Part shown: piece after piece, positions 1,260-20,780 of the stretch
Layout: every line of letters begins with the position of its first letter
Numbering within the stretch: position 1 is the stretch's first letter
Source: an uncultured Eudoraea sp.
GTDB taxonomy: Bacteria > Bacteroidota > Bacteroidia > Flavobacteriales > Flavobacteriaceae
Length of the DNA stretch: 64,000 bases
Assembly (NCBI RefSeq): GCF_947490415.1
Contig: NZ_CANLGX010000003.1
Span: 579,821 to 643,820, forward strand
Reading direction: 5' to 3'
Program-made: the position numbers and the translations under genes
Notes under the pieces: generated by a model
What the model saw: the letters and a program-made list of their open reading frames with translations, nothing else
Told to the model about the DNA's origin: nothing
Database searches by the model: none

Positions 1260-3686
1260 ATGAAAATTTCCTATAACTGGTTAAAACAGTTTCTTAAGCT
1301 CGATTGGGAAGCAGAAAAAACAGGGGAACTTCTAACCAATTTAGGGCTTGAAGTAGAAGGCATCTCCCAATTCGAGTCTATTCCCGGTTCTTTAGAGGGT
1401 GTAGTAGTAGGCCATGTCCTAAGTTGTGAAAAGCATCCGAATGCCGATAGGTTAAAGCTGACTACGGTTGATATTGGTTTAGAAAACCCTGTTCAGATAG
1501 TTTGTGGTGCGCCAAATGTCGCCGAGGGACAAATGGTACCTGTGGCCACGATAGGTTCTACGTTATACGCCAATGATGGAAAGACCCTGCTAATTAAGAA
1601 AGGAAAGATAAGAGGCGTTGAGAGTCATGGAATGATTTGCGCAGAAGATGAGTTAGGTTTAGGTGAAAGCCATGAGGGTATAATGGTTTTAAGCGAGACA
1701 CTCATACCGGGAACGGCTTGTTCCGAAATCTTTAAAATAGAAAAAGATGAAATCTTTGAAATCGGCTTAACACCAAACAGAGCGGACGCTATGAGCCATC
1801 ATGGAGTAGCCAGAGATCTAAAAGCAGGGCTTAAGCAGAGAGATATTCATACAGAACTTATTACTCCCTCCGTAAGTAATTTCAATATTGAAAACAGATC
1901 GTTAAAAATAGATGTTGCGGTTGAAAATAACAACCTCGCACCGAGGTATTGCGGAGTAACACTTAGTAATCTTATTGTGCAGCCTTCTCCGGATTGGTTA
2001 AAAAACAGATTGCGCGCCATCGGCCTGAGCCCTATTAATAATGTGGTAGACGCTACTAATTACGTCCTGCATGAATTGGGGCAGCCCTTGCACGCATTTG
2101 ATGCCGATAGAATTAGCGGCAAAAAGATAGTTGTAAAGACTTTACCATCCGGCACTAAATTTATGACCCTGGACGGTGAGGAACGCATTTTGAATGAAGA
2201 AGATTTAATGATATGTGATGATGAGAAGCCCATGTGTATTGCCGGAGTTTTTGGGGGAATTAATACAGGTGTGACGGAAAATACCAGATCAATATTTCTT
2301 GAAAGCGCCTATTTTGACCCCGTTTCAATTAGGAAAACCGCCAAACGCCACGGGTTAAATACTGATGCATCTTTTCGTTTTGAAAGAGGTGTAGATATAA
2401 ATAACACCGAATATTGCCTGCGCAGGGCAGCTTTATTGATAAAGGAGATCACAGGGGGAGATGTTACTTCGGACGTTGTAGATCTTTATCCCCGGAAGAA
2501 AGATGATTATCAGGTATTTCTTTCTTTCGAAAGAATCAATACCTTAATAGGGCAAAAAATACCCGCAGATACGATTAAGTCTATATTGGCATCCTTAGAT
2601 ATCCAGGTTAAAAATTCTACCGAATCGGGCTTAGGGCTTCTTATTCCATTTTACAGAGTAGATGTACAAAGAGAAGTGGATGTAATTGAAGAAATTTTGA
2701 GAATTTACGGATATAACAATATTGATTTTAAAGAAAAGCTGAATGCTTCCATTGCTACCAGTACAAGATTTGAAGATCATAAACTTGAAAAACTAATTGG
2801 CGAGATGCTGGCTTCGAGAGGTTTTTATGAAATTATGACCAATAGTCTTACCAGTCCCAATTATGATAAATTTCTAGCTACTAATTCTGAAGAAACGAGA
2901 GTTGCCATATTAAATCCGTTAAGTGCAGATTTATCAGTTTTAAGACAAACCATGCTATTTTCGGCATTAGAAACAGTGGCTTATAATATTAACAGAAAAA
3001 AACAGAACCTAAATTTTTTCGAATTTGGAAAAACATACCAGAACACCAAATCAGATTATTTAGAATCTAAGCACTTAACCTTAATTATTACGGGAACCCG
3101 AAATGAAAACAGCTGGATCTTTCCTTCCAGGCCTACAGATTTTTATTTCCTAAAAGCAGCAGTTGAACTGGTTTTAGAGCGACTTGGTATTGCTGATTAT
3201 AACTCATTTTCCGAGCAGAATGACATTTTCCATGAAGGCCTATGCCTGAAAAAGAATAATACTGAATTGGTAACCTTTGGAATTGTTCAAAAGGCTATTT
3301 TGAAAGAATTTGATATTAAACAAGATGTTTTTTATGCCGATTTTAAGTGGGACGCATTATCAAAGAACATCCCCAAGAATAAAATAATTTTTGAGAAAAT
3401 TCCAAGATTTCCTGAGGTAAAAAGAGATCTGGCTTTATTGTTGGACATGGATATCTCATTTGATGAAATCAAAACCATTGCATTCGATACAGAAAGAAAT
3501 CTACTGAAAAATATTACTCTTTTTGACGTCTATACCGGAAAGAATCTCCCACCGGAAAAAAAATCATATGCTGTAGGATTTACCATAGGGGATGCCCGGA
3601 AAACATTAACGGATAAGCAGATCGATAAGATTATGAAAAAACTGCAGCAACGCTTTGAAAAAGAGTTGGGTGCAGAGTTACGATAG
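1260..3686 (+). CDS. pheT: Phenylalanine-tRNA ligase beta subunit
   Basis: Beta chain of the heterotetrameric PheRS, which charges tRNA-Phe with phenylalanine in the cytoplasm. At 808 residues it has the usual full length. It opens with the family-typical MKISYNWLKQF, followed by an EMAP-type tRNA-binding domain (about 42-155), B3/4 editing and B5 domains (about 200-480), a catalytic-like core, and a C-terminal FDX-ACB anticodon-binding domain from about 715 (FPEVKRDLALLLD). pheS is not adjacent, so the alpha subunit is encoded elsewhere. A TAnnTTTG promoter lies just upstream. The stop codon is one base from the convergent fasciclin gene. Confidence 0.98.
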   Translation: MKISYNWLKQFLKLDWEAEKTGELLTNLGLEVEGISQFESIPGSLEGVVVGHVLSCEKHPNADRLKLTTVDIGLENPVQIVCGAPNVAEGQMVPVATIGSTLYANDGKTLLIKKGKIRGVESHGMICAEDELGLGESHEGIMVLSETLIPGTACSEIFKIEKDEIFEIGLTPNRADAMSHHGVARDLKAGLKQRDIHTELITPSVSNFNIENRSLKIDVAVENNNLAPRYCGVTLSNLIVQPSPDWLKNRLRAIGLSPINNVVDATNYVLHELGQPLHAFDADRISGKKIVVKTLPSGTKFMTLDGEERILNEEDLMICDDEKPMCIAGVFGGINTGVTENTRSIFLESAYFDPVSIRKTAKRHGLNTDASFRFERGVDINNTEYCLRRAALLIKEITGGDVTSDVVDLYPRKKDDYQVFLSFERINTLIGQKIPADTIKSILASLDIQVKNSTESGLGLLIPFYRVDVQREVDVIEEILRIYGYNNIDFKEKLNASIATSTRFEDHKLEKLIGEMLASRGFYEIMTNSLTSPNYDKFLATNSEETRVAILNPLSADLSVLRQTMLFSALETVAYNINRKKQNLNFFEFGKTYQNTKSDYLESKHLTLIITGTRNENSWIFPSRPTDFYFLKAAVELVLERLGIADYNSFSEQNDIFHEGLCLKKNNTELVTFGIVQKAILKEFDIKQDVFYADFKWDALSKNIPKNKIIFEKIPRFPEVKRDLALLLDMDISFDEIKTIAFDTERNLLKNITLFDVYTGKNLPPEKKSYAVGFTIGDARKTLTDKQIDKIMKKLQQRFEKELGAELR

Positions 3687-3687
3687 G

Positions 3688-4239
3688 TTACAATTGATTT
3701 GGCAAAATTACACTGTCAATTACGTGGATAACACCATTACTCTGATTGGCATCTGCAGAAGTTATCCTTGCTATATTTCCAAAACAATCAGTTAGAACAA
3801 TATCCAGGCCATCCATAGTGGCTAATAACTCATTACCCTGAACAGTAGTTAAACTCGCAATACCTTTACCCCTGCACATTGCCTTTAATATTTTTGAAGC
3901 CGTAAGATTACCAGCAACGATGTGATAGGTAACAAAAGATTGTAAGGCCCTTTTATTTTCAGGTCTTAACAATGCAGCTATCTTATCCTCAGACATCTTC
4001 TTAAAGGCTCCGTCTGATGGAGCAAAAATTGTGAATGGACCATCACCAGCGAGAGTTTCTTCAAGATCTGCAGCTTTTACAGCAGCAAGAAGCGTTTTGT
4101 GAATTTGAGATTCCTCCGTGCTCCGAATAATTGTTTTTTTTAATAGATCATTATTTACGGAAGCCAGGGAAGTTTGAGAAAAAGTTGTTAAAGAGGTCAA
4201 TAAGGCAAGTAGGCTTAGGGGGGTTGCCAAATATTTCAT
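3688..4239 (-). CDS. Exported fasciclin (FAS1) domain protein
   Basis: A 183-residue protein with an N-terminal signal peptide (hydrophobic residues about 5-25) and one FAS1 domain (about 40-180). Both FAS1 hallmarks are visible: the H1 segment FTIFAPSDGAF and the H2 segment NGVIHVIDSVILP. FAS1 domains mediate adhesion to surfaces, matrix or partner proteins, but the ligand here is unknown. The two cysteines in the mature part (in the MCRGKG and TDCFGN segments) could form a disulphide. It faces pheT tail to tail with one base between stops. Confidence 0.9.
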   Translation of the reverse strand: MKYLATPLSLLALLTSLTTFSQTSLASVNNDLLKKTIIRSTEESQIHKTLLAAVKAADLEETLAGDGPFTIFAPSDGAFKKMSEDKIAALLRPENKRALQSFVTYHIVAGNLTASKILKAMCRGKGIASLTTVQGNELLATMDGLDIVLTDCFGNIARITSADANQSNGVIHVIDSVILPNQL

Positions 4240-4385
4240 GGTATCTAATTTAAATTATTCGAAATTATCGATGAACGGTATAGCTAAGCCGACAAGATAC
4301 AATTATGGTGGACACAGTCATATAAGTGAAAATGCATTTGAAAGAATTTAACAAAATATTAACGTTGCTGAAATCTTAAACAGAA

Positions 4386-4416
4386 TTTGTTTCATAAAGT
4401 CAATTCATTATTTTTG
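4386..4416 (+). promoter_or_regulatory. Canonical Bacteroidota promoter for the 4442 gene
   Basis: TTTG at 4386-4389, a 19-base spacer, then TATTTTTG at 4409-4416. This matches the TTTG-N19-TAnnTTTG consensus of the Bacteroidota housekeeping sigma factor exactly. The ATG is 26 bases downstream of the -7 element. Confidence 0.75.
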
Positions 4417-4441
4417 ACTCAATTGCTAGAAAAAGAAACCC

Positions 4442-5158
4442 ATGTTATTAAAAAACACAAATATCCAGGAGCAACTCAATAAAGCAAAACGTCAGTTCTC
4501 CGAAGAACAGCTTATTAATGAGGTATATTTACTCTTACAGAAATCTTCCGAAAAAGAAGAAAAAATTCTGAAAAAAATATCCGGCAGTACTAATCGTTCA
4601 CAAAATAATTTCAAATTTGATCTTTTAGAAACAGATAGAATTTTTCACATTGATCAAATAAAGGAAATCTGCATTAACTACAGACTTCGTTTTCTGGACT
4701 CCAAATATTTTAAAGGTCAGATTCCGGATAAAACAATTGATAAGATAAAACTGCTGGAGAAAAAGCATAATATTGAAATTGAAGGTTTTAAAATAGTTGC
4801 CCCTTCAAAACTGTTCAAATTAGCAGATAAAGATGATCCCCTATTGTTTGCCCCTATTGGTAATGGATATTTTTATTTAATTGATAAATGGGGTAATGAT
4901 CTGCATCCTTTACGCAGGATTCTGGTTTGGCCATTTAAGAATATTATCAACCTTACATTACTTGTAGTTTTAATCAGTTATCTAACTACACTTTTTATTC
5001 CAAACGGACTTTTTTCAAAATCAAATTCGCAAATGGAATTTATGATAATATTCTTTTTTATGTTCAAATCTATAGCCGCGGTAGTTATTTTCTACGGGTT
5101 CGCTTTGGGTAAGAATTTTAATCCTGCTATCTGGAATAGTAAATATTTTAATGCCTGA
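4442..5158 (+). CDS. Uncharacterised membrane-anchored protein
   Basis: A 238-residue protein whose function I do not recognise. The N-terminal about 160 residues are charged and helical (many Lys/Glu), with no signal peptide, so this part probably sits in the cytoplasm. Two hydrophobic segments follow (about 165-187 and 198-222), separated by a short loop, giving a tail-anchored hairpin. It is a single-gene unit with its own consensus promoter and converges on the lipoprotein gene that ends at 5214. The start is the ATG at 4442; no earlier in-frame alternative looks better. Confidence 0.75.
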   Translation: MLLKNTNIQEQLNKAKRQFSEEQLINEVYLLLQKSSEKEEKILKKISGSTNRSQNNFKFDLLETDRIFHIDQIKEICINYRLRFLDSKYFKGQIPDKTIDKIKLLEKKHNIEIEGFKIVAPSKLFKLADKDDPLLFAPIGNGYFYLIDKWGNDLHPLRRILVWPFKNIINLTLLVVLISYLTTLFIPNGLFSKSNSQMEFMIIFFFMFKSIAAVVIFYGFALGKNFNPAIWNSKYFNA

Positions 5159-5213
5159 GCATATAGACTAGCGAATTTCATATTGTACTTCGCTTTTTTC
5201 ATGCGGTGTTAAA

Positions 5214-6356
5214 TTAGTTGGTATACATCTGAAAAGGCACGCCATTCAGATCTATATTATCGATAAATGCAGGGTTGGGAATAGGTCTGACACGCAATAG
5301 GCCACCTTTACCAGGATCTCCTGATTTCTGATATCCAATTAAAATAAGGTTGTTTTTGGCATCGTATGAAACCATGCTGGTATCGCCAATTTCGAATTCA
5401 ACTAATTGTTCCTGTTCCGATAAAAAATTCTCGTAGTAATAAAGAAATGCAGTATTAGTTTCAAAATCATAAACAGCCGGAATATTTGGATATGAAGTCC
5501 CGGAAAAATTCGTGGGCATTGAATAATACAAATTCCCTACATCATCATAAAAGGAGGATTCAGAATCTCCGAATCCAGGTTCCTTACCATCGCCATAACG
5601 AATCGTTGCGCTTATTGCCATTGTAGTACTGCTAATAATATGATGTAACTCAGGATAACTGACTATGATATTCTCATCATCGGATTTAAAAAGTCTTTGT
5701 ACGTCAAATCCGAGATTTATATCGGCTACTAACTCTCCCATCCCGGTATCAAAGACTATCAAGGCATTTTTATTTTCATCTTCTATATCCTCTGATAAAA
5801 TATATACGTGATTATTTGAAAAAACTGCCTGTAAGGGTCTTTTAGCCAACTCAATATCAACAAATTCAGCTACTGATGTTGAGGTGTCAATTATTCGAAT
5901 ATAATAAAGTGTCTCTTTGGCTCCTCCTCCGGGTACCTCATAACCAACGTAGAAGGTATTTTCGGAATGAGCAAGTGCCCGAACAATAAGATCACAATTT
6001 CCCAAATCATCAAAGACAATTGTTTTTTGTAAGGCGTCATTTTTAAAATCATATAAAGAAATTCTCCCTGAACAATCCGTTTGAGCATTAAAAATACTTA
6101 TTTCGTTTCCGTCTCTGTAAGTAACCGAAGGAAAAGAAATACCTTCAAATTCACTTATCCCCGGATCTAAAAAAATAGTTTCAGCATCAGCATCTAAATT
6201 AATAAGTGATAGGACTTCATTAGATTGCACCAACAATGAATAATTAGCATCAACATTGGGAAAGTCTTCTTTTGTATTCTGAAGGTCTCCGGTATCATCG
6301 CTGCACCCCAGCATAAAAAGGGCCAGCAAAAGAAAGTAAATTCTGTAGGTTTGCAT
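5214..6356 (-). CDS. Lipoprotein of unknown function, beta-propeller-like
   Basis: A 380-residue protein with a lipoprotein signal (lipobox LGCS at about residues 16-19), so it is probably anchored in the outer or inner membrane. The mature part is rich in alternating hydrophobic beta-strand segments with repeated patterns such as an aromatic or aliphatic run followed by DD/DN turns, suggesting a propeller-type fold. I cannot assign a family with confidence; it could fall among the Bacteroidota DUF4221-type proteins. It ends 30 bases upstream of... the next minus-strand gene begins transcription before it, with the ABC-F gene (6386-8014) on the same strand, so the two may be co-transcribed. 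Confidence 0.75.
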   Translation of the reverse strand: MQTYRIYFLLLALFMLGCSDDTGDLQNTKEDFPNVDANYSLLVQSNEVLSLINLDADAETIFLDPGISEFEGISFPSVTYRDGNEISIFNAQTDCSGRISLYDFKNDALQKTIVFDDLGNCDLIVRALAHSENTFYVGYEVPGGGAKETLYYIRIIDTSTSVAEFVDIELAKRPLQAVFSNNHVYILSEDIEDENKNALIVFDTGMGELVADINLGFDVQRLFKSDDENIIVSYPELHHIISSTTMAISATIRYGDGKEPGFGDSESSFYDDVGNLYYSMPTNFSGTSYPNIPAVYDFETNTAFLYYYENFLSEQEQLVEFEIGDTSMVSYDAKNNLILIGYQKSGDPGKGGLLRVRPIPNPAFIDNIDLNGVPFQMYTN

Positions 6357-6385
6357 AGCATTAGGATTTGGGAGGTCCTATTCAG

Positions 6386-8131
<1,746 letters not shown>

Positions 8132-13006: not shown

Positions 13007-14554
13007 ATGCGCCAAAGTCTTTTTATTATACCAATTCTATTGATAACACTTCTCTGGTGTTCTTGCAGGAAGGATTTTCAGTACGATACGAGCAGTGGCA
13101 ATTTGGAGTTTTCAAAGGATACAGTCTATTTAGATACGGTCTTTACCAATATTGGCAGTAGTACTTATTCTCTAAAGGTCTATAACCGATCAAATAACGA
13201 TATACAAATCCCTAGTGTTCGTCTGGCACAAGGAAATAATAGCAGCTACAGATTAAATGTAGATGGTGTGGCCGGGAAAGAATTTGAAAATGTCCCATTA
13301 ATGGCCAAAGACAGCTTATTTATTTTTATCGAAACAACTTTTGATATTTCGACAATAAGCGGGAATGAATTTTTGTATACGGATGCCATCCTTTTTGATG
13401 CAGGCCCCAAACAGCGGGAAGTTCAATTAGTGACTTTAATAAAAGATGCTATATTCCTTTATCCTGCAGAAAATGCTGATGGAACTAAGGAAACTTTACT
13501 TTTGGGACTGGACAAAGATGGAAATGAAATTAGAATAGAAGGATTTCTTCTTACCGATGAGCAACTGAGCTTTAGCAATGAAAAACCTTATGTTATCTAT
13601 GGTTATGCCGGAGTAGCATCCGATAAAATCCTTAATATTGCTGCAGGCAGCAGAGTACACTTTCACAAAGATTCGGGAATATTGGTAGGAGAAGGGGCTT
13701 CCCTTAAGGTTAATGGGACTTTAAGCATGGATACGCTTCTTTTGGAAAATGAAGTAATTTTTGAGGGTGACCGCCTGGAAACTGAGTTCTCCGAGGTGCC
13801 CGGGCAGTGGGGAACCATTTGGCTGGCTCCCGGCAGTAGTAACAATATCATAAACCATCTTACCATCAGGAATGCTTCTGTGGGACTATTGGTTGAAGGT
13901 AATTCGGACTTAAATCCGCCAAAACTTTCGGTCAGTAATTCTCAGATTTATAACAGCCTGGCGATAAATATTTGGGCAAAATCTTCCTCAATTAATGGAG
14001 AAAATTTGGTGCTGGGTAATGCGGGAAATGGCTCATTAATCCTTTCCAATGGGGGTAGTTATTCTTTTGTGCACTGTTCAATAGCCAATTATTGGAGTAA
14101 TGGTTTCAGATCAGGTGCTGCATTGCAAATCAGTAATTATGATCTCGTGGAGGATACAAGTGCAAGCGGACAGGACCTTGCAGCTAGTTTTATAAACTGT
14201 ATTGCAGATGGCAATATGTCTCTTGAACTCTCCTTAAATTCTGATGAGACAAATGCATTTGACTTTTCTTTCAAGAATTGCCTGATTAAATTTAAGGATA
14301 CAAATAATCAGTTTGATTCAGATCCTTTGTATGATTTTGATAATGATACCTACTACAACAATGTTTTTCTGAATGAGAATGCTGATTTTTGGAATACTGC
14401 AAAAAACGATTTCAGGCTTGGCATTTCTTCTTCGGCAATTGGCAAAGCAGATCCTGACACAGCATTGCTGGTACCCTCAGATCTTCTGGGAACAGATCGC
14501 AGTTCTGAACCCGATATTGGGGCCTATGAATTTGTAGCTTTCGATCAGAATTAA
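13007..14554 (+). CDS. Beta-helix lipoprotein of unknown function
   Basis: A 515-residue lipoprotein (lipobox WCSC at about residues 17-20). Residues about 25-140 contain a beta-sandwich-like domain (DTVYLDTVFTNIGSSTYSLKVYN) as seen in proteins of the choice-of-anchor kind. The rest has short repeated strands with Asn-rich turns (ILNIAAGSRVHFHKDSGILV, NNIINHLTIRNASVGLLVEG), the pattern of a right-handed parallel beta helix. The C-terminal DIGAYEF is a common end of such helices. Probably surface or outer membrane located. Function unknown; third gene of the run starting at 11542. Confidence 0.82.
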   Translation: MRQSLFIIPILLITLLWCSCRKDFQYDTSSGNLEFSKDTVYLDTVFTNIGSSTYSLKVYNRSNNDIQIPSVRLAQGNNSSYRLNVDGVAGKEFENVPLMAKDSLFIFIETTFDISTISGNEFLYTDAILFDAGPKQREVQLVTLIKDAIFLYPAENADGTKETLLLGLDKDGNEIRIEGFLLTDEQLSFSNEKPYVIYGYAGVASDKILNIAAGSRVHFHKDSGILVGEGASLKVNGTLSMDTLLLENEVIFEGDRLETEFSEVPGQWGTIWLAPGSSNNIINHLTIRNASVGLLVEGNSDLNPPKLSVSNSQIYNSLAINIWAKSSSINGENLVLGNAGNGSLILSNGGSYSFVHCSIANYWSNGFRSGAALQISNYDLVEDTSASGQDLAASFINCIADGNMSLELSLNSDETNAFDFSFKNCLIKFKDTNNQFDSDPLYDFDNDTYYNNVFLNENADFWNTAKNDFRLGISSSAIGKADPDTALLVPSDLLGTDRSSEPDIGAYEFVAFDQN

Positions 14555-14620: not shown

Positions 14621-14641
14621 AAACCTTAATTATTCTATGGT
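14621..14641 (+). promoter_or_regulatory. Copy A of a shared 21-base motif upstream of the LytTR gene
   Basis: Reads AAACCTTAATTATTCTATGG followed by T. It matches copy B (18689-18709) at 20 of 21 positions, the only change being A/T at position 9. It ends 35 bases before the TTTG (14676-14679) of a weak -7 element, and no TTTG is present at -33. That placement suits an activator site, possibly for the LytTR protein encoded next to it; the binder is an inference. Confidence 0.6.
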
Positions 14642-14696
14642 AAAAGTAGGGTGTCTTTTCGAATAGGTTTACTACTTTGTACCCAAATAGCTTGGC

Positions 14697-15428
14697 ATGG
14701 AGTATTCTTATACTATAATTGATTCCGACGCCACCTCAAATTTGCAGTTGCAGCACTATTTGGAGGACTATGGGGATTTTGTATGCACCAGTCAGGCCAG
14801 AAACTGTGAAGATGGCTTAAATGCTATTCTTAAATACACTCCGGATGTTGTTTTTATTAACCTAAACGACAAGGCTTTTGAATATTTTCACATGGTCACT
14901 GAATTGTATCAGTATGTTAAAAATATTCCCATTCTTATTGGAATCTCAAAAAGCAAGGAGTACGCCTATAATGCTATTAAAAATAATTTCTTTGACTACT
15001 GGCTGATGCCTTATAATGAATTTGATATTCGTAAGACGTTATTACGGCTTAAAAAACAATTGCCAAAAGAAGATGTTTCTCATACGCTTTGTCTTAAATC
15101 TTACAATGATTACCAATATCTGGATACCAATGAAATACTTTATTTAAGAGCAGACAATAATGCTACAGATTTTATCATGAAAGACGGCAGCAAAATAAGC
15201 GCTTATAAAACCCTTAAGACTTTTGAAAATCAGTTACCCTCCAATTTTATACGTGTTCACCAAAGTTATATCCTGAACACGCATTATGTCTCGGGAATTA
15301 ATTATGGAAAATCTACATGCTTCTTAAAGATTAGGAAAACACAACTGCCTTTCTCCAAATCTTATAAAGAAAATATAGATGGTTTAAAAAAGATTTTATC
15401 AAAAAACACCATATCACCCTCCAATTAA
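14697..15428 (+). CDS. LytTR transcription regulator with a degenerate receiver domain
   Basis: A 243-residue two-domain regulator. Residues 1-120 have a CheY-like receiver fold with acidic residues at Asp9 and Asp11, but the expected phosphoacceptor aspartate is Asn55 (VVFINLND) and the conserved lysine before proline is Met104 (YWLMPYN). Residues about 136-240 form a LytTR DNA-binding domain (EILYLRADNNATDF, LPSNFIRVHQSYILN). Loss of both key residues predicts activity that does not depend on phosphorylation. It starts the signalling island and is preceded by motif copy A, so self-regulation is possible. Confidence 0.92.
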   Translation: MEYSYTIIDSDATSNLQLQHYLEDYGDFVCTSQARNCEDGLNAILKYTPDVVFINLNDKAFEYFHMVTELYQYVKNIPILIGISKSKEYAYNAIKNNFFDYWLMPYNEFDIRKTLLRLKKQLPKEDVSHTLCLKSYNDYQYLDTNEILYLRADNNATDFIMKDGSKISAYKTLKTFENQLPSNFIRVHQSYILNTHYVSGINYGKSTCFLKIRKTQLPFSKSYKENIDGLKKILSKNTISPSN

Positions 15429-15442
15429 AGGAATACTCTCAA

Positions 15443-15470
15443 AAACCTTTCAAATACTCATAGAATAGGT
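15443..15470 (+). promoter_or_regulatory. Possible third, diverged copy of the shared motif upstream of the small lipopeptide gene
   Basis: AAACCTT at 15443-15449 equals the first seven bases of copies A and B. A few bases on, CATAGAAT (15459-15466) is the reverse complement of their ATTCTATG core, and GAATAGGT (15463-15470) also occurs downstream of copy A at 14661-14668. The pieces match but the whole alignment does not, so this is only a candidate site. Confidence 0.3.
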
Positions 15471-15575
15471 ACATCTGCTAATACTTTTATTTTAAAACAA
15501 TAAACTTTTGGTTATCCTTTTAGATTAGTCCCATGCTAGTCAATAATAAATAACCCCTTAAAAAAAACGATAAAG

Positions 15576-15722
15576 ATGAAAAAAGTTTTAAGCATTGTCG
15601 CAATAGTAGTATTTAGTATGGGATTATATTCCTGTGACGCAGATAACAGCGCCGAAGATCAAACCTTATATGAGCAGGGAACTGATGGAGATGATACACC
15701 GATTGGAGGAGGTAGAAGCTAA
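15576..15722 (+). CDS. 48-residue secreted lipopeptide, unknown function
   Basis: A short open frame with ATG at 15576 and TAA at 15720-15722. It encodes a signal peptide (MKKVLSIVAIVVFSMGLYSC) with a lipobox cysteine at residue 20. The mature part would be 29 residues, acidic (DADNSAEDQ) and ending in a glycine-rich tail (PIGGGRS). A strong hairpin terminator follows 48 bases later, so the gene forms a separate short transcript. It sits between a LytTR regulator and a TPR sensor kinase. I recognise no family. It could be a signal peptide for the kinase, a small envelope lipoprotein, or less probably an unused frame. Confidence 0.7.
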   Translation: MKKVLSIVAIVVFSMGLYSCDADNSAEDQTLYEQGTDGDDTPIGGGRS

Positions 15723-15770
15723 ATTAAATTTTAAGAATATATTCAACCCTCACAATTTTTATAAATAATT

Positions 15771-15803
15771 AAAAAGCCTTAAATAGTGTATTTAGGGCTT
15801 TTT
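15771..15803 (+). terminator. Intrinsic terminator after the small lipopeptide gene
   Basis: AAAAAGCC-TTAAATA pairs with TATTTAG-GGCTTTTT around a very short loop, ending in a T-run. It separates the lipopeptide transcript from the kinase gene at 15842. The AT tails make it potentially bidirectional. Confidence 0.8.
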
Positions 15804-15841
15804 AATTATCTTGTATTGGAAGCAATTAGTTTCTAAGTGTT

Positions 15842-17944
15842 ATGGTAACTAAAAAACATATAGTTCTAATATCGCTCTTACTTCTTTTTTTTTCCTGCAA
15901 AAAAGAAAATCAATCTACCCATTTAAATAGTGAACTTCTCAGTCTAGATAGCACCCAAGTGTGGATCAAAAATGGAACAGACGCAAATCTACCTTTAAAG
16001 GCCCAAAAGGATTTTTTACAAAAGGCCTATGAGAGTGCTACCAGTGAACCAAATGATTCCATAAGGCTGAAGTATTATTCCGAACTTTCGCTGGCGTATC
16101 TACTAACAGATTCTATTAATTTCAGGAAGATTAACAAAAGTGGGCAGCTTATCTCACAAGAAACTAAAGATTCTTTAATCTTAGCGGCCTTACATTGGGA
16201 TCTGGGCTATTTTTATCAGTATAATTTTATTAAAGACAGCGCCTATTACGAATACGCCCAGGCAGAAAAAATTTATACCGCCTTAAATGATAAGTCCAGA
16301 AGAGGCCGAGTACTTTATAGAATGTCTTTAATACAAAAAGATATAAAGGACTTTACCGGGGCAGAAATTAACCTCATAAAAGCCATTGAACTGCTTCAAA
16401 CTGTGGAAAATAATGAACAATTGTTCCTCTGTTATAATTTATGGGGAACTCTTGCCAAAAGCTTGAATGAATTTGAGCTATCACGAAACTATTTTTCTAA
16501 AGCAGCGGAATACCTCAACAAACTACCAAAAGAATCAATTAATGAAAAACAAAACATACTGAACAATAATATTGGGAATTCTTATAAGGAACAAGGAGAT
16601 TATTTAAAAGCTATTCCATATTTCGAAAAGGTAGTAAGCACAGATAGTTTGCTGATTAAGAATTCAAAAAGCTACGCTCTTGCCCTTGATAATTTGGCTT
16701 ATAGTCAGTTCAAAACGGGCCAAATGAAAATTTCCGAAGCCAATTTAAAAGAGGCTTTGCAAATTAATATCCAGGAGAACTACCTTGATCAAATTGCCAT
16801 GAGTCGCTACCATCTGGCGGAGTATTTTTTGGCTGAAAGAGATACTACAATGGCAATGGCCAATGCTCAGGTGGCTCTTGAAATTGCAAAAGAAGGTAGT
16901 GATAACCAGCTTGTTCTTGAAACATTAAAGCTATACCCTTTATTAGACCCAGAAAATGCACCGTCCTATCTGAAGGAATACCTGGTTTTAAATGACAGTC
17001 TCCAGGAAGAAGATCGCAAGATCAGAAACAAATTTGCCCGTATCCGTTTTGAAACCGATGAGTTTATAGCGGAAAACCAACTTTTGGCAAGACAAAGGCA
17101 GCTATGGATAGGTATTGCTATAGGCCTTTTTTTATTGGCTATTTCCGTTCTTATTATTATTACTCAGCGCGCTAAAAATCGAAATCTGCGGTTCCAACAA
17201 CAACAACAGCAGGCCAACCAGGAAATATTTGAACTGATGCTCGCCCAGAACCAAAAACTGGAGGAAGGAAAACAATCTGAACAGAAACGAATTTCAGAGG
17301 AACTTCACGATGGCATACTGGGTGAAATGAATGGTATTCGGATGATGTTGTTGGGATTGAACAAAAAAATAGATGATAATGCCATTAGCATGCGCGGTGC
17401 GGCTATTGAAAAGTTACAAGGTGTGCAGGAAGAGATACGAACAATTTCTCACCAATTAAACGATGCTTCTTATCAGAAATTCCATAACTTTATAATATCC
17501 ATTGAAGATTTATTAAGAAATATATGTAACGCAGCTAATCTGGAGTACCATTTTAAATATGATGAAGGTCTTGATTGGGATGCCTTAAGTGGCGATATTA
17601 AAATTAATCTTTACAGAGTTATCCAGGAAAGTCTTCAAAATAGCATTAAACACTCCGCTGCTACAAGGATTAATCTTGAAATGGACTCAACAGATAGTGA
17701 ATTAAAAGTAACACTAAAAGATAACGGCCGGGGCTTTGATACCAAAAAAGGTAAGAAAGGGATTGGTCATAAAAATATTACTTCCAGGGTAAATAAATTA
17801 AACGGGGACTGGAGTTTAGAGAGCAAACCAGGAAAAGGCACCCTGGTAACCGTACAAGTGCCATACCAATTAAAGGAATCTGAAAGTGTAAGTCAGATTA
17901 ATGGAAAAGAAAAATTTAAGACAGTAGAAAAAACTTCATCATGA
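15842..17944 (+). CDS. Lipidated TPR-containing sensor histidine kinase
   Basis: A 700-residue sensor kinase. The N-terminus is a lipoprotein-type signal (LFFSC at about residues 16-20). Residues about 45-400 are tetratricopeptide-like helical repeats (for example NNNIGNSYKEQGDYLKAIPYFEKV), expected outside the inner membrane. One transmembrane helix (about 421-442) is followed by a coiled coil rich in Gln. The NarL-class dimerisation domain has the phosphorylatable His489 in ISEELHDGILGE, and the ATPase domain has NSIKHS, DNGRGFD and GIGHKNI boxes. Its ATGA overlap with the next gene marks a coupled kinase-regulator pair. The ligand is unknown; a peptide is plausible. Confidence 0.93.
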   Translation: MVTKKHIVLISLLLLFFSCKKENQSTHLNSELLSLDSTQVWIKNGTDANLPLKAQKDFLQKAYESATSEPNDSIRLKYYSELSLAYLLTDSINFRKINKSGQLISQETKDSLILAALHWDLGYFYQYNFIKDSAYYEYAQAEKIYTALNDKSRRGRVLYRMSLIQKDIKDFTGAEINLIKAIELLQTVENNEQLFLCYNLWGTLAKSLNEFELSRNYFSKAAEYLNKLPKESINEKQNILNNNIGNSYKEQGDYLKAIPYFEKVVSTDSLLIKNSKSYALALDNLAYSQFKTGQMKISEANLKEALQINIQENYLDQIAMSRYHLAEYFLAERDTTMAMANAQVALEIAKEGSDNQLVLETLKLYPLLDPENAPSYLKEYLVLNDSLQEEDRKIRNKFARIRFETDEFIAENQLLARQRQLWIGIAIGLFLLAISVLIIITQRAKNRNLRFQQQQQQANQEIFELMLAQNQKLEEGKQSEQKRISEELHDGILGEMNGIRMMLLGLNKKIDDNAISMRGAAIEKLQGVQEEIRTISHQLNDASYQKFHNFIISIEDLLRNICNAANLEYHFKYDEGLDWDALSGDIKINLYRVIQESLQNSIKHSAATRINLEMDSTDSELKVTLKDNGRGFDTKKGKKGIGHKNITSRVNKLNGDWSLESKPGKGTLVTVQVPYQLKESESVSQINGKEKFKTVEKTSS

Positions 17945-18612
17945 AAACGATTCGGATTTTAGCGGTAGATGATCATGAAATGACCACAATGGGATATAAA
18001 TTTATCCTGGAGGACACAGAATTTAAAGAATTTAGAGTACATGTAGATACTGCCAAAACCTATGAAGGGGCGATACAAAAAATAGAAAATTCTGTCACTT
18101 CATTTAATTATGACATTCTTTTATTAGACATACAATTATCACAAGCTGTTGAAGGACCTGCGAAAACCGGCGAAGATATAGGGGTTTTTGCACGAAAGGT
18201 GATTCCCAGGACAAAAATTGTTTTTATGTCTTCATTTAGTGATAATTACAGAATAAACAGTATTCTTAAGACTGTTGATCCCGAAGGTTATATGGTAAAA
18301 ACAGAAATAGATCAAAAATCATTACAGGCTATGGTCCTAACTGTAATATCCAATCCCCCCTATTATACACAGAAGGCCCTTGCAGCTATTCGGAAAAAGA
18401 TGGCTAATGATGATATTGTCCTGGATGAGAAAGATAAAAAGATACTTCATTATCTCTCTATAGGTACTAAAACTAAAGATATGGTTAATTATGTATCCTT
18501 ATCACTTCCCAGTATTGAAAATAGAAAACGGAATCTGAAAGCAGTTTTTGGGGTTGAAAAACAGAATGATCAGGCCTTGATTACCGAATCCAGAAACAGA
18601 GGATTCATCTGA
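17941..18612 (+). CDS. Response regulator, receiver plus LuxR-type-like output domain
   Basis: A 223-residue response regulator with an intact receiver: acidic pair Asp10/Asp11, phosphoacceptor Asp63 (ILLLDIQL) and Lys120. The receiver has an insertion after Asp63 (QAVEGPAKTGEDIG). The C-terminal about 65 residues (DEKDKKILHYLSIGTKTKDMVNYVSLSLPSIENRKRNLKAVFG) resemble a LuxR/NarL helix-turn-helix. Start codon ATG overlaps the kinase stop (ATGA), so the two are translationally coupled and it is the probable partner of that kinase. Targets are unknown; the 18777 gene downstream is a candidate. Confidence 0.92.
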   Translation: MKTIRILAVDDHEMTTMGYKFILEDTEFKEFRVHVDTAKTYEGAIQKIENSVTSFNYDILLLDIQLSQAVEGPAKTGEDIGVFARKVIPRTKIVFMSSFSDNYRINSILKTVDPEGYMVKTEIDQKSLQAMVLTVISNPPYYTQKALAAIRKKMANDDIVLDEKDKKILHYLSIGTKTKDMVNYVSLSLPSIENRKRNLKAVFGVEKQNDQALITESRNRGFI

Positions 18613-18688
18613 ATATACTCCCTCCTTCTAAGCAAAACTAGTCCCGTTTCTTTCTTCAAACTTGTCAGTTAAATACAAAATGCATGTA

Positions 18689-18709
18689 AAACCTTATTTA
18701 TTCTATGGT
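18689..18709 (+). promoter_or_regulatory. Copy B of the shared 21-base motif upstream of the 18777 gene
   Basis: Reads AAACCTTATTTATTCTATGG followed by T, 20 of 21 identical to copy A. It ends 36 bases before the TTTG of the -7 element at 18741-18748, almost the same spacing as copy A (35). Two near-identical sites with equal promoter spacing, 4 kb apart, support one regulator controlling both genes. Confidence 0.62.
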
Positions 18710-18740
18710 TTTTATATAGCCTACTATTATTTTTTAAAAT

Positions 18741-18748
18741 TAATTTTG
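18741..18748 (+). promoter_or_regulatory. Candidate -7 element of the 18777 gene
   Basis: TAATTTTG matches TAnnTTTG, 29 bases before the ATG. No TTTG is found at the -33 position, which fits an activator-dependent promoter using copy B of the motif. Confidence 0.5.
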
Positions 18749-18776
18749 ATATATACCAATAAGTTTTTTTGTTATA

Positions 18777-19448
18777 ATGTCAAACAAACAGGATAATTTT
18801 AGAGATAATCTTAAGCTTAAGCTGGATGACAACCCTCAAATAAAGGGATTGACTGCTTTTAGAAAGAGTTTGGAAAAAGATTATTTTTCTAATGTAGCCA
18901 TACGAAACTGTTCCACGGATAATACCCGGGAAAATTTAGTAATTGAAATGGATTGCAATTTTAAACTGGTTGAAGTTCTGTCACATTTACAAAAAGGTAC
19001 CTGGGGCAGAATATACTCTACACAGAATAGCTGGTCTAAAAGTTCCCCATTTTCTAAGGCATTGAGAAGCTTAAATGAATTGAATCGCAGGAGAATAGAT
19101 ATTGAAGAACTTTCTATTTTTTTAAAAGATTCCTCTATTATCATTAAGAATATATTTGAAAATAGTATTGAAGAACAACTTCGGCAAATTCTTCAAACTA
19201 TTGCAGAACACTATGTGTATTTTACCAAAAAACTTACTGAAACTCCCTATGAAATATATATTCCAGTCTTTGAGGAAGACCTCTTTGAAAATGATACCAA
19301 ACTAAAGAATATTAGGGCTGGAAATAATGATAAGAAAGATTATTTTGAATATTGGGGTCTTTATTTCGATTCTGAAAAAGATGCCGTAATCTATGACTTG
19401 AAGAATAAATCAATCATTTTTGGCGACTTATTTATGTTAAATCATTGA
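18777..19448 (+). CDS. Uncharacterised cytosolic protein of the signalling island
   Basis: A 223-residue protein with no signal peptide or membrane segment and no family that I can recognise. It is charged, mixed alpha/beta, with a basic and helical middle (SKALRSLNELNRRRIDIEELSIFLKDSS) and an acidic C-terminal third. Its promoter shares the 21-base motif with the LytTR gene, and it lies 164 bases downstream of the response regulator. A strong terminator ends it. A role as an output of the island is inferred from position and motif only. Confidence 0.7.
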   Translation: MSNKQDNFRDNLKLKLDDNPQIKGLTAFRKSLEKDYFSNVAIRNCSTDNTRENLVIEMDCNFKLVEVLSHLQKGTWGRIYSTQNSWSKSSPFSKALRSLNELNRRRIDIEELSIFLKDSSIIIKNIFENSIEEQLRQILQTIAEHYVYFTKKLTETPYEIYIPVFEEDLFENDTKLKNIRAGNNDKKDYFEYWGLYFDSEKDAVIYDLKNKSIIFGDLFMLNH

Positions 19449-19453
19449 TTAAA

Positions 19454-19489
19454 ATGGAAAACCAATAAATAGGGCTATTGGTTTTCCAT
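19454..19489. terminator. Bidirectional terminator between the 18777 gene and glyA
   Basis: A 14-base perfect inverted repeat (ATGGAAAACCAATA and TATTGGTTTTCCAT) around the 8-base loop AATAGGGC. It lies between two convergent genes and would serve either direction, though a long T-run is absent. Confidence 0.7.
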
Positions 19490-19502: not shown

Positions 19503-20780
19503 CTATCCATTGTTAAATAACGGAAGGTTTTTCATCAACTTATTAACCTTTTCTTTTACCTTCAAAACGACATCCTCCTCTTCCGGATGAGTAATAACTT
19601 CATCTATTAAGTCTACAATTTTGACCATATCCTGCTCTTTAAGACCTCTGGTAGTTATCGCAGCAGTACCAAATCTAATTCCTGAAGTTATAAAGGGTGA
19701 TTTATCATCAAATGGAACCATATTTTTATTTGCGGTAATATCAGCTTTGACCAGAATGTTTTCAGCATCCTTTCCGGTAATATTTTTATTTCGCAGATCT
19801 ATGAGCATCATATGATTATCGGTACCGCCGGAAATTATGTTATAATCTTTGGCAACAAAAGCTGCAGCCATAGCTGCGGCATTTTTCTTTACCTGCAACA
19901 TATAATGCAAAAATTCATCTGAAAGGGCTTCACCAAAAGCTATTGCCTTGGCTGCTATAATATGCTCTAAAGGCCCTCCCTGGTTACCAGGAAAAACGGC
20001 TAGATTAATCAAGGCAGACATTTTTCTTAAATTTCCGTTTTTCAGCTTAATCCCAAAAGGATTATCAAAATCCTGCCCCATTAAAATTAACCCACCTCTG
20101 GGGCCTCTAAGGGTTTTATGTGTTGTTGTGGTAACAAAATGACAGTGTGGTATGGGATCATTTAATATCCCTTTTGCAATTAGTCCTGCAGGATGTGCAA
20201 TATCTGCCAGTAAAAGTGCATCTACACTATCTGCAATTTCCCTAAATCTTTTAAAATCCATATCCCGGGAATACGCAGAAGCTCCCGCGATAATTAACTT
20301 CGGACGCTCCTTTTTAGCTATTTCCTCTATTTTATCGTAGTTTATCACACCGGTTTCTTCATCTACACCGTAAAACACCGGTCGGTAAAGCTTTCCGGAA
20401 AAATTAACCGGTGAACCGTGAGTAAGATGACCTCCATGTGAAAGATCAAAACCTAAAATTGTATCCCCGGGATTTAAACATGCCTGGTATACCGCTGCAT
20501 TTGCCTGAGAACCCGAATGCGGTTGAACATTTGCGTATTCCGCGCCAAATAATTCTTTAGCCCTGTCTATTGCCAGTTGTTCAATCTTATCAACTACTTC
20601 ACACCCCCCGTAATAGCGCTTTCCGGGATAACCCTCTGCGTATTTGTTGGTTAGAACAGATCCGGCAGCTTCCATAACTTGTGGACTTGTAAAATTTTCA
20701 GAAGCAATAAGCTCTATCCCATTTAATTGCCGTTCTTTTTCCTCGGCAATTAAGTCAAATATTTGATGGTCGCGTTGCAT
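19503..20780 (-). CDS. glyA: Serine hydroxymethyltransferase
   Basis: Cytosolic PLP enzyme converting serine and tetrahydrofolate to glycine and methylene-tetrahydrofolate, the main source of one-carbon units. 425 residues, the family's usual length. Motifs: [10 protein letters not shown] near the N-terminus, [13 protein letters not shown], the Asp-containing [12 protein letters not shown], and the PLP-binding lysine in [15 protein letters not shown]. The end has the GTAAITTRG folate-site segment. Single gene, divergent from fahA across a 112-base gap. Confidence 0.98.

What the first reader, a model, noticed from the sequence alone, without database searches (positions are those of the whole stretch)
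14621..19489. Candidate peptide-responsive regulatory island
Seen: an ordered set of a LytTR regulator with a degenerate receiver, a 48-residue lipopeptide gene with its own terminator, a lipidated TPR sensor kinase overlapping its response regulator, and an unknown cytosolic protein, with a shared promoter motif on the first and last genes. Known: secreted or exported short peptides sensed by TPR-containing proteins are established in Gram-positive Rap/Rgg systems, though those TPRs are cytosolic. Inference: here an extracytoplasmic TPR domain could sense the lipopeptide or a fragment of it. I know of no described system with this exact arrangement.
Basis: partly seen in the sequence, partly recalled or inferred. 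Interest (0 to 1): 0.75.

Follow-up and report, generated by a model that had tools for sequence, protein, structure and literature searches.

The report
Peptide autoinduction circuit in marine flavobacteria
A cluster of five neighbouring genes looks like a complete chemical-signalling circuit, in which the bacterium secretes a short peptide, senses it outside the membrane with a kinase, and answers by making more of it; my searches found no description of such a circuit in these bacteria.

Summary
The order LytTR regulator – small secreted peptide – TPR histidine kinase – NarL-type response regulator – unknown protein is present in 30 of 35 close-group loci. A signal-peptide-bearing small ORF lies directly upstream of 92 of 95 kinases of this clade, against 21 of 337 other ORFs. 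In 13 of 93 precursors a C-terminal unit of about 11-16 residues is repeated, up to six times (0 of 4650 shuffles). The copies differ almost only at synonymous sites (pS 0.53, pN 0.02), as in a multi-copy pro-pheromone. The shared motif is a dyad with two full copies in the 3.9-Mb genome; its variants agree between the two promoters of one genome. The peptide promoter carries LytTR-type repeats at 21-bp spacing. Best reading: peptide → periplasmic TPR kinase → response regulator → LytTR gene and unknown gene; LytTR → peptide gene, closing a positive loop. Binding, processing and autoinduction are inferred. Lipidation is not essential, because some precursors lack the lipobox. The unknown protein's function is unresolved. 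Ten literature searches listed no description.

The parts
14621..14643 (+). Dyad operator upstream of the LytTR gene (AAACCTTA-N7-TATGGTAA)
   Evidence: Two full matches in genome; conserved in L003/L004; variants in other genera
14670..14679 (+). -7-like promoter element (TACTACTTTG) of the LytTR gene
   Evidence: Sequence, conserved in L003/L004; the Bacteroidetes -7 consensus is recalled
14697..15428 (+). LytTR transcription regulator with degenerate receiver
   Evidence: Pfam LytTR 4.7e-18; N55 and M104
15432..15481 (+). Three phased repeats at 21-bp spacing (15432-15444, 15453-15465, 15474-15481), predicted LytTR binding sites for the peptide gene
   Evidence: 21-bp spacing z=7.4 (pair) and 6.0 (triple) over 30 regions; one exact match of the two-repeat pattern in the genome, four more with 3 mismatches
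15521..15528 (+). -7-like element TAGATTAG of the peptide gene
   Evidence: Seen as TAGTTTAG-like in many relatives
15576..15722 (+). 48-aa secreted lipopeptide precursor; signal peptide residues 1-19, lipobox Cys20
   Evidence: ORF; orthologues
15681..15719 (+). Codons 36-48 (TDGDDTPIGGGRS): counterpart of the unit that is tandemly repeated in some relatives; predicted signal peptide
15765..15809 (+). Intrinsic terminator after the peptide gene
   Evidence: terminator at this place in 30 of 31 loci
15842..17944 (+). TPR sensor histidine kinase (HisKA_3/HATPase), lipobox Cys19, H489
   Evidence: model
15950..16945 (+). Coding part of the extracytoplasmic TPR solenoid (residues 37-368)
   Evidence: AF2 model, block pLDDT mostly 85 or more here, overall pTM 0.54; fold matches
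17090..17164 (+). Transmembrane helix, residues about 417-441
   Evidence: Read from the sequence; inside the long model helix
17941..18612 (+). NarL-family response regulator with intact D10/D11/D63/K120 and LuxR-like C-terminus
18689..18711 (+). Second copy of the dyad operator (AAACCTTA-N7-TATGGTTT)
18741..18748 (+). -7-like element TAATTTTG of the unknown gene
   Evidence: Conserved in the 3 relatives aligned, L003-L005
18777..19448 (+). Cytosolic protein of unknown function, predicted output of the circuit
   Evidence: No convincing Pfam, NCBIfam, PADLOC or PDB-fold match; in 32 of 199 genomes, each time within about 0.5 kb of this RR
19454..19489 (.). Inverted repeat (14-nt perfect arms) between the unknown gene and the convergent gene at 19503-20780 (glyA-like, my reading), probable shared terminator

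Best explanation
This is a self-contained peptide autoinduction (quorum-sensing-like) two-component circuit. The small gene makes a Sec-exported, usually lipidated precursor whose C-terminal unit of about 11-16 residues, probably cut near a basic residue close to the C-terminus, is the signal. The signal binds the periplasmic TPR solenoid of the kinase. The kinase phosphorylates the NarL-type response regulator. The regulator binds the ACCWTA-N7-TAWGGT dyad and activates the LytTR gene and the unknown gene. The LytTR protein cannot be phosphorylated in the usual way, so it acts through its amount: it binds three 21-bp-phased repeats and activates the peptide gene, closing a positive loop. Shown from sequence: gene order, secretion signals, repeat structure, selection on the unit, dyad and phased repeats, terminator, intact and degenerate phospho-sites. 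Inferred: processing, binding, which regulator binds which site, direction of regulation, density dependence.
For: Five-gene order in 30 of 35 close-group loci. Small secreted ORF upstream of 92 of 95 clade kinases versus 21 of 337 other ORFs. 13 of 93 precursors carry internal repeats, 0 of 4650 shuffles; pS 0.53 vs pN 0.020 among copies of 12 precursors; 3 loci carry arrays of whole peptide genes. K/R within the last five residues in 21 of 30 close-group precursors versus 7.7 expected. Partial Mantel of peptide against TPR domain, controlling for kinase, r=0.39, 0 of 2000. Joint absence of TPR domain, peptide and LytTR in L064, with kinase core, RR and unknown protein kept. TPR model matches LGN-peptide and Rap-pheromone structures. 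Dyad: exactly 2 full sites in the genome; LytTR- and unknown-gene dyads more alike within than between genomes (18.47 vs 16.48 of 23; 0 of 10000 permutations, 19 genomes). Recognition-helix type and dyad arm go together: TTV helices have no CCNTA arm (0 of 8), the others have it in 21 of 21. LytTR-like 21-bp repeats match the published layout of repeats with 11-13-nt spacers (passages of PMC6193735 and PMC4847170).
Against: No expression, binding or mass-spectrometry data. The 21-bp spacing stood out only in the 30 close-group regions (other tiers z=-0.4, 1.0, 0.6), so the LytTR-to-peptide step may not be general. The best palindrome near the LytTR start reaches 7 of 8 arm positions in only 11 of 30 loci, against 30 of 34 at the unknown gene; in the window itself the LytTR-side dyad pairs at 5 of 8. 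The relaxed dyad is not enriched genome-wide (93 matches versus 194 for the reversed-pattern control). One relative (L066, an 86% complete genome) has a frame-broken peptide gene with an intact kinase. Most precursors (80 of 93) have a single unit. K/R near the C-terminus is weak in the third tier (11 of 23 versus 7.2). Helix/arm and Mantel comparisons do not remove shared ancestry. TPR fold matches are generic (designed TPRs also match).
Confidence: 0.73

Rival explanations
1. Tethered co-sensor: the lipopeptide is a periplasmic or outer-membrane partner of the kinase that reports lipoprotein trafficking or envelope stress (as NlpE or RcsF do, recalled), not a message between cells.
For: Lipobox in 26 of 30, 22 of 22 and 23 of 23 precursors of the first three tiers; kinase also carries the lipobox Cys in 31 of 33.
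Against: Lipobox missing in 4 of 30 close-group precursors and in 13 of 18 in the fourth set; identical tandem units with mostly synonymous divergence and arrays of whole genes suit a released signal better than a single tether.
Confidence: 0.15
2. The peptide is a bacteriocin or other effector that also induces its own synthesis, with the unknown protein as immunity or partner.
For: Autoinduced bacteriocins use comparable loops (general knowledge; listing holds examples); unknown protein is locus-bound.
Against: No transporter or modification gene among the five genes or the neighbours read; mature parts acidic (median net charge -8 in the close group) or near neutral (median 0 in the fourth set); no PADLOC match; peptide occurs without a recognised unknown gene in the other tiers.
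Confidence: 0.05
3. The kinase senses something else (for example a metal bound by acidic or CxxC units); the peptide is a buffer or carrier.
For: DGDD and CDDC-type units in several precursors.
Against: In other loci the unit is not acidic and has no Cys (for example IIGAGATGGNKKVD), yet position and repeat structure are the same.
Confidence: 0.04

Closest known systems
RRNPP systems (Rap-Phr, NprR-NprX, PlcR-PapR and others) of Firmicutes
   Same: Adjacent gene for a Sec-exported propeptide and a TPR receptor; TPR model resembles Rap bound to CSF or to a phage Phi3T pheromone (ranks 44-45 of the Foldseek list)
   Different: RRNPP receptors are 250-500 aa intracellular proteins (passages of PMC10075063); here the TPR domain is extracytoplasmic and fused to a transmembrane histidine kinase, so no peptide import is needed
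Peptide two-component quorum sensing of Gram-positives (agr, ComCDE, plnABCD, sil)
   Same: Secreted peptide, membrane kinase, response regulator, proposed positive loop, LytTR-type sites with 21-bp period
   Different: Kinase is HisKA_3 with TPR sensor instead of a polytopic HPK10 type (type recalled); the phosphorylated regulator is NarL-type, and the LytTR protein is a separate second step without phospho-acceptor
LytTR regulatory systems (HdrRM, BrsRM; PMC6193735, passages)
   Same: LytTR protein acting on direct repeats with about 12-bp spacer, positive feedback
   Different: No membrane inhibitor gene next to the LytTR gene; control comes from a two-component system
FimS-FimR of Porphyromonas gingivalis
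   Same: Weak similarity to the NCBIfam FimS model (46.9 bits over residues 236-454)
   Different: Far below the family cut-off of 600; whether FimS has a paired peptide was not tested
Yeast alpha-factor type multi-copy pheromone precursors
   Same: Several identical copies of a short signal in one secreted precursor
   Different: Bacterial, Sec or lipoprotein export, no GPCR (comparison from general knowledge)

Membership tests
RRNPP quorum sensing | Adjacent Sec-exported propeptide of 10-100 aa | tested here: met
   48 aa with signal peptide next to the kinase; pairing in 92 of 95 clade kinases
RRNPP quorum sensing | Receptor is a 250-500 aa intracellular TPR protein | tested here: not met
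   700-aa kinase with lipobox and transmembrane helix; criterion from PMC10075063 passages
agr/Com-type peptide two-component systems | HPK10-type polytopic kinase with LytTR response regulator as phosphate acceptor (definition recalled) | tested here: not met
   HisKA_3 kinase; LytTR acceptor is N55, D in 1 of 31
Peptide autoinduction (works like) | Secreted peptide activates its own kinase and expression | not testable with these tools
   Only indirect: pairing, repeats, operators
NarL/FixJ-type two-component system | HisKA_3 kinase with conserved His, and receiver plus LuxR-like HTH | tested here: met
   HisKA_3 25.5 bits, cut-off 24; H489 33 of 33, D63 and K120 39 of 39; RR profile matches VraR, RcsB, NarL over nearly full length; Pfam GerE itself not hit and Response_reg at 29.6 bits, just under its cut-off 30.2
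LytTR regulatory system (LRS) | LytTR gene with adjacent membrane inhibitor gene | tested here: not met
   No such gene beside it in the window
LytTR DNA-binding regulators | Repeats of 9-11 nt with 11-13-nt spacer near target promoters | tested here: met
   21-bp period, z=7.4 over 30 loci; layout from PMC4847170 passage; binding untested
FimS (NCBIfam HK_Porph_FimS) | Score above curated cut-off 600 | tested here: not met
   46.9 bits
PG1828 family lipoprotein | Score above curated cut-off 50 | tested here: not met
   18.8 bits over residues 1-27 only

The most novel reading that the evidence does not exclude
A family-wide, undescribed class of Gram-negative peptide pheromone systems: repeat-encoded, purifying-selected signals of about 11-16 residues read by periplasmic TPR histidine kinases, with unit sequences that differ by lineage and co-diverge with the sensor (private languages), amplified in one large branch by a two-step NarL-RR to LytTR positive loop.
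Probability: 0.62. Interest if true: 0.95.

Novelty: new variant of a known kind. Interest (0 to 1): 0.88.

Why it matters
Peptide quorum sensing is textbook Gram-positive biology; one review, seen in passages, states that Gram-negatives use AHLs, AI-2 and other small molecules, while noting that Bacteroidetes hold relatives of some quorum-sensing two-component proteins (PMC8895600). If this reading is right, a large family of polymer-degrading bacteria signals with repeat-encoded peptides, and the predicted units can be synthesised and tested at once. The extracytoplasmic TPR kinase would also give a ligand class to an orphan sensor type.

Tried and rejected
UNK function: Pfam, NCBIfam, PADLOC, PDB sequence profile and Foldseek on a model of mean pLDDT 79 gave nothing convincing (best Foldseek E 0.15). 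Larger regulon for the dyad in the own genome: relaxed pattern below control (93 vs 194); of three further zero-mismatch places looked at, L085 lies inside an ORF, L083 between ORFs, and L091 was not located by my string search; a fourth lies inside the 515-aa gene of the window (13584-13603). Chance or artefact origin of the small ORF: rejected. Lipidation as the essential feature: rejected. My first count of small ORFs upstream of kinases (58 of 96 vs 6 of 320) was distorted by ATG-only kinase starts, so I repeated it with one rule for all genes (six of the seven UNK control hits there are read-outs inside the RR gene, which makes the control conservative). My first synonymous/non-synonymous count used patterns that forced identity, so I repeated it by position. 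One search holds 12 of the 13 repeat precursors (the degenerate L047 left out), an ascertained set. Rows dropped: in the dyad comparison, 19 genomes with the CC..GG form at both promoters were kept, L003/L004 left out as near-duplicates; in the helix/arm table 29 of 34 unknown-gene promoters were used (L056, L057, L069, L070, L071 dropped, two of them TTV); the Mantel test used 24 of 30 close-group peptides (L047, L058, L060, L061, L070, L077 left out). L077 was left out of the repeat-spacing and dyad tests. One distant LytTR place (G079, short contig) was not fetched. In a draft of this report I had 22 of 22 for the helix table and four equal genes in L147; both are corrected here.
Full report
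OBSERVATION. The window belongs to a 3.9-Mb genome. The closest named relatives of its kinase are uncultured Eudoraea genomes (L003-L005). The kinase has a lipobox Cys19, a TPR solenoid, a transmembrane helix near residues 417-441 (my reading) and HisKA_3/HATPase domains. The response regulator has an intact phospho-site. The LytTR receiver lacks the acceptor Asp (N55) and the conserved Lys. A terminator follows the peptide gene. The motif shared by the first and last gene has exactly two full matches in the genome.

CONSERVATION. In L003 and L004 the order is identical. A profile of the response regulator found matches in 125 of 199 family genomes, 198 genera. I fetched the 40 best places outside the window. 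Of these and L003-L005 (43 loci), 34 hold a LytTR or unknown-gene relative; with the window they are the close group of 35. In 30 of the 35 all five genes are present (L061 with a duplicated kinase, L071 with a broken unknown gene). L005, L048 and L059 run off their contigs. L066 has a frame-broken peptide gene. L064 has no LytTR, no peptide and no TPR domain, but keeps kinase core, regulator and unknown gene. The other nine are two lone regulators (L073, L074) and seven kinase-regulator pairs, each with a small secreted ORF upstream. LytTR relatives (E<=1e-40) occur in 54 of 199 genomes. The unknown protein occurs in 32 of 199, each time within about 0.5 kb of the regulator (compared by coordinates). 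At phylum level 29 of 296 genomes match the regulator at E<=1e-25, all in the same family.

PEPTIDE. In further samples, 22 of 23 loci with a more distant LytTR (L120 has no kinase), 17 of 17 with kinase and regulator only, and 18 of 20 in the set also have a secreted small ORF just upstream of the kinase (the two exceptions, L171 and L172, have a regulator without kinase). These are samples, not every match. Under one rule for all genes the count is 92 of 95 kinases against 21 of 337 other ORFs. The three misses are the second kinase of L061, L064 and L066. Regulators without a TPR kinase (L073, L074, L120, L171, L172) have no such peptide directly upstream (L074 has an unrelated-looking 139-aa lipoprotein-like ORF about 1.1 kb away). 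Two more distant TPR kinases have none within the same distance (L006 has a 37-aa ORF that passes the filter about 0.4 kb upstream, L007 none).

REPEATS. In 13 of 93 precursors the C-terminal unit is repeated, with 0 of 4650 shuffled controls: six CDDCAHDSDDRETL copies in L058 (the last ends differently), five TDGDDTPTDDRQS in L046 (one with a substitution), five VSGSGAARSTKLD in L168, four IIGAGATGGNKKVD in L154, three TDDDDNPVVEREG in L043, and others. Twelve were compared copy by copy: 284 differences at 531 synonymous sites (0.53) against 37 at 1856 non-synonymous sites (0.020) (pairwise counts are not independent, and only recognisable repeats enter). Three loci carry arrays of whole genes: three near-identical plus a divergent one in L147, four plus a divergent one in L166 and L167. 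A basic residue lies within the last five residues in 21 of 30 close-group precursors (7.7 expected), 10 of 22 (3.5), 11 of 23 (7.2) and 17 of 18 (8.1) in the others, consistent with cleavage at a basic residue. A lipobox is present in 26 of 30, 22 of 22, 23 of 23 and 5 of 18.

SENSOR. The AlphaFold2 model (pLDDT 81, pTM 0.54) shows a TPR superhelix from 37 to 368. Foldseek matches LGN-peptide complexes, Rap with CSF or with a phage pheromone, designed TPRs, and VraS/DesK for the kinase; such TPR matches are broad. The TPR region is more variable (mean pairwise identity 0.32-0.38) than the dimerisation region (0.64) and the ATPase domain (0.46). Peptide distance correlates with TPR distance after removing kinase distance (partial r=0.39, 0 of 2000 permutations; 0.19, 69 of 2000 for the juxtamembrane part) on 24 peptides.

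REGULATORY SITES. The dyad ACCWTA-N7-TAWGGT lies 75-80 nt before the LytTR start in most close-group loci and 80-97 nt before the unknown gene's start in most. The best palindrome of the region pairs at 7 or 8 of 8 arm positions in 30 of 34 unknown-gene promoters (mean 7.18, shuffled 5.85) but in only 11 of 30 LytTR promoters (mean 6.33, shuffled 5.51). Variants are shared by the two promoters of one genome: 18.47 of 23 identical, against 16.48 between genomes, 0 of 10000 permutations, 19 genomes. The regulator's recognition helix changes in step: with TTV helices 0 of 8 arms are CCNTA, with the others 21 of 21 (29 of 34 promoters used; related genomes, not independent). I therefore assign the dyad to the response regulator. 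Upstream of the peptide gene three repeats of the AATACTCACAGAA kind lie 21 bp apart. Over 30 loci this spacing exceeds all others from 8 to 40 (z=7.4 pairs, 6.0 triples); the other tiers do not show it. LytTR proteins bind repeats of 9-11 nt with 11-13-nt spacers (passages of PMC4847170 and PMC6193735). I therefore assign these to the LytTR protein.

MECHANISM (inferred). These pieces close a loop: peptide, TPR kinase, response regulator, LytTR gene (and unknown gene), LytTR protein, peptide gene. The LytTR protein lacks its phospho-acceptor, so its amount probably carries the signal, which fits control of its gene by the regulator. The terminator (30 of 31 loci) separates a short peptide transcript from the kinase-regulator pair. 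What the circuit controls besides itself is, as far as the dyad shows, one cytosolic protein of unknown fold.

NOVELTY. Ten searches of the held library (one search aimed at LytTR sites) listed no paper that describes such a system. The library lacks most subscription papers and preprints, so this is not proof of absence. It works like peptide quorum sensing but fails defining tests of RRNPP, agr/Com and LRS.

Noticed in passing
L147 1142-1923; L166 965-1989; L167 916-1938 (oriented loci): Arrays of three (L147) or four (L166, L167) near-identical peptide genes upstream of one kinase, with one divergent copy next to the kinase.
   Followed up: partly
L061 (oriented) 2666-6961: Tandem duplication of the TPR kinase between the peptide and the response regulator.
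   Followed up: partly
L058 (G032:C1:3236945-3237664): A second LytTR gene in tandem upstream of the first.
   Followed up: no
Upstream of peptide genes in L122, L132, L133, L135 (exact), L121, L127, L134 (1 mismatch): A palindrome, TTGTGCACAA, recurs in 4 of 22 second-tier regions exactly (0 of 30 in the close group), where the 21-bp repeats are missing; it may be the operator of another sub-branch.
   Followed up: partly
L071 (G001:C12:248195-248849): The unknown gene is interrupted by a stop, while peptide, kinase and regulator stay intact.
   Followed up: no
L073, L074 (G018): Two extra response regulators of this clade without TPR kinase or peptide.
   Followed up: partly
window 13007-14554: 515-aa lipoprotein-like protein without Pfam match (E up to 0.5), upstream of LytTR also in 24 of 34 close-group loci.
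   Followed up: no
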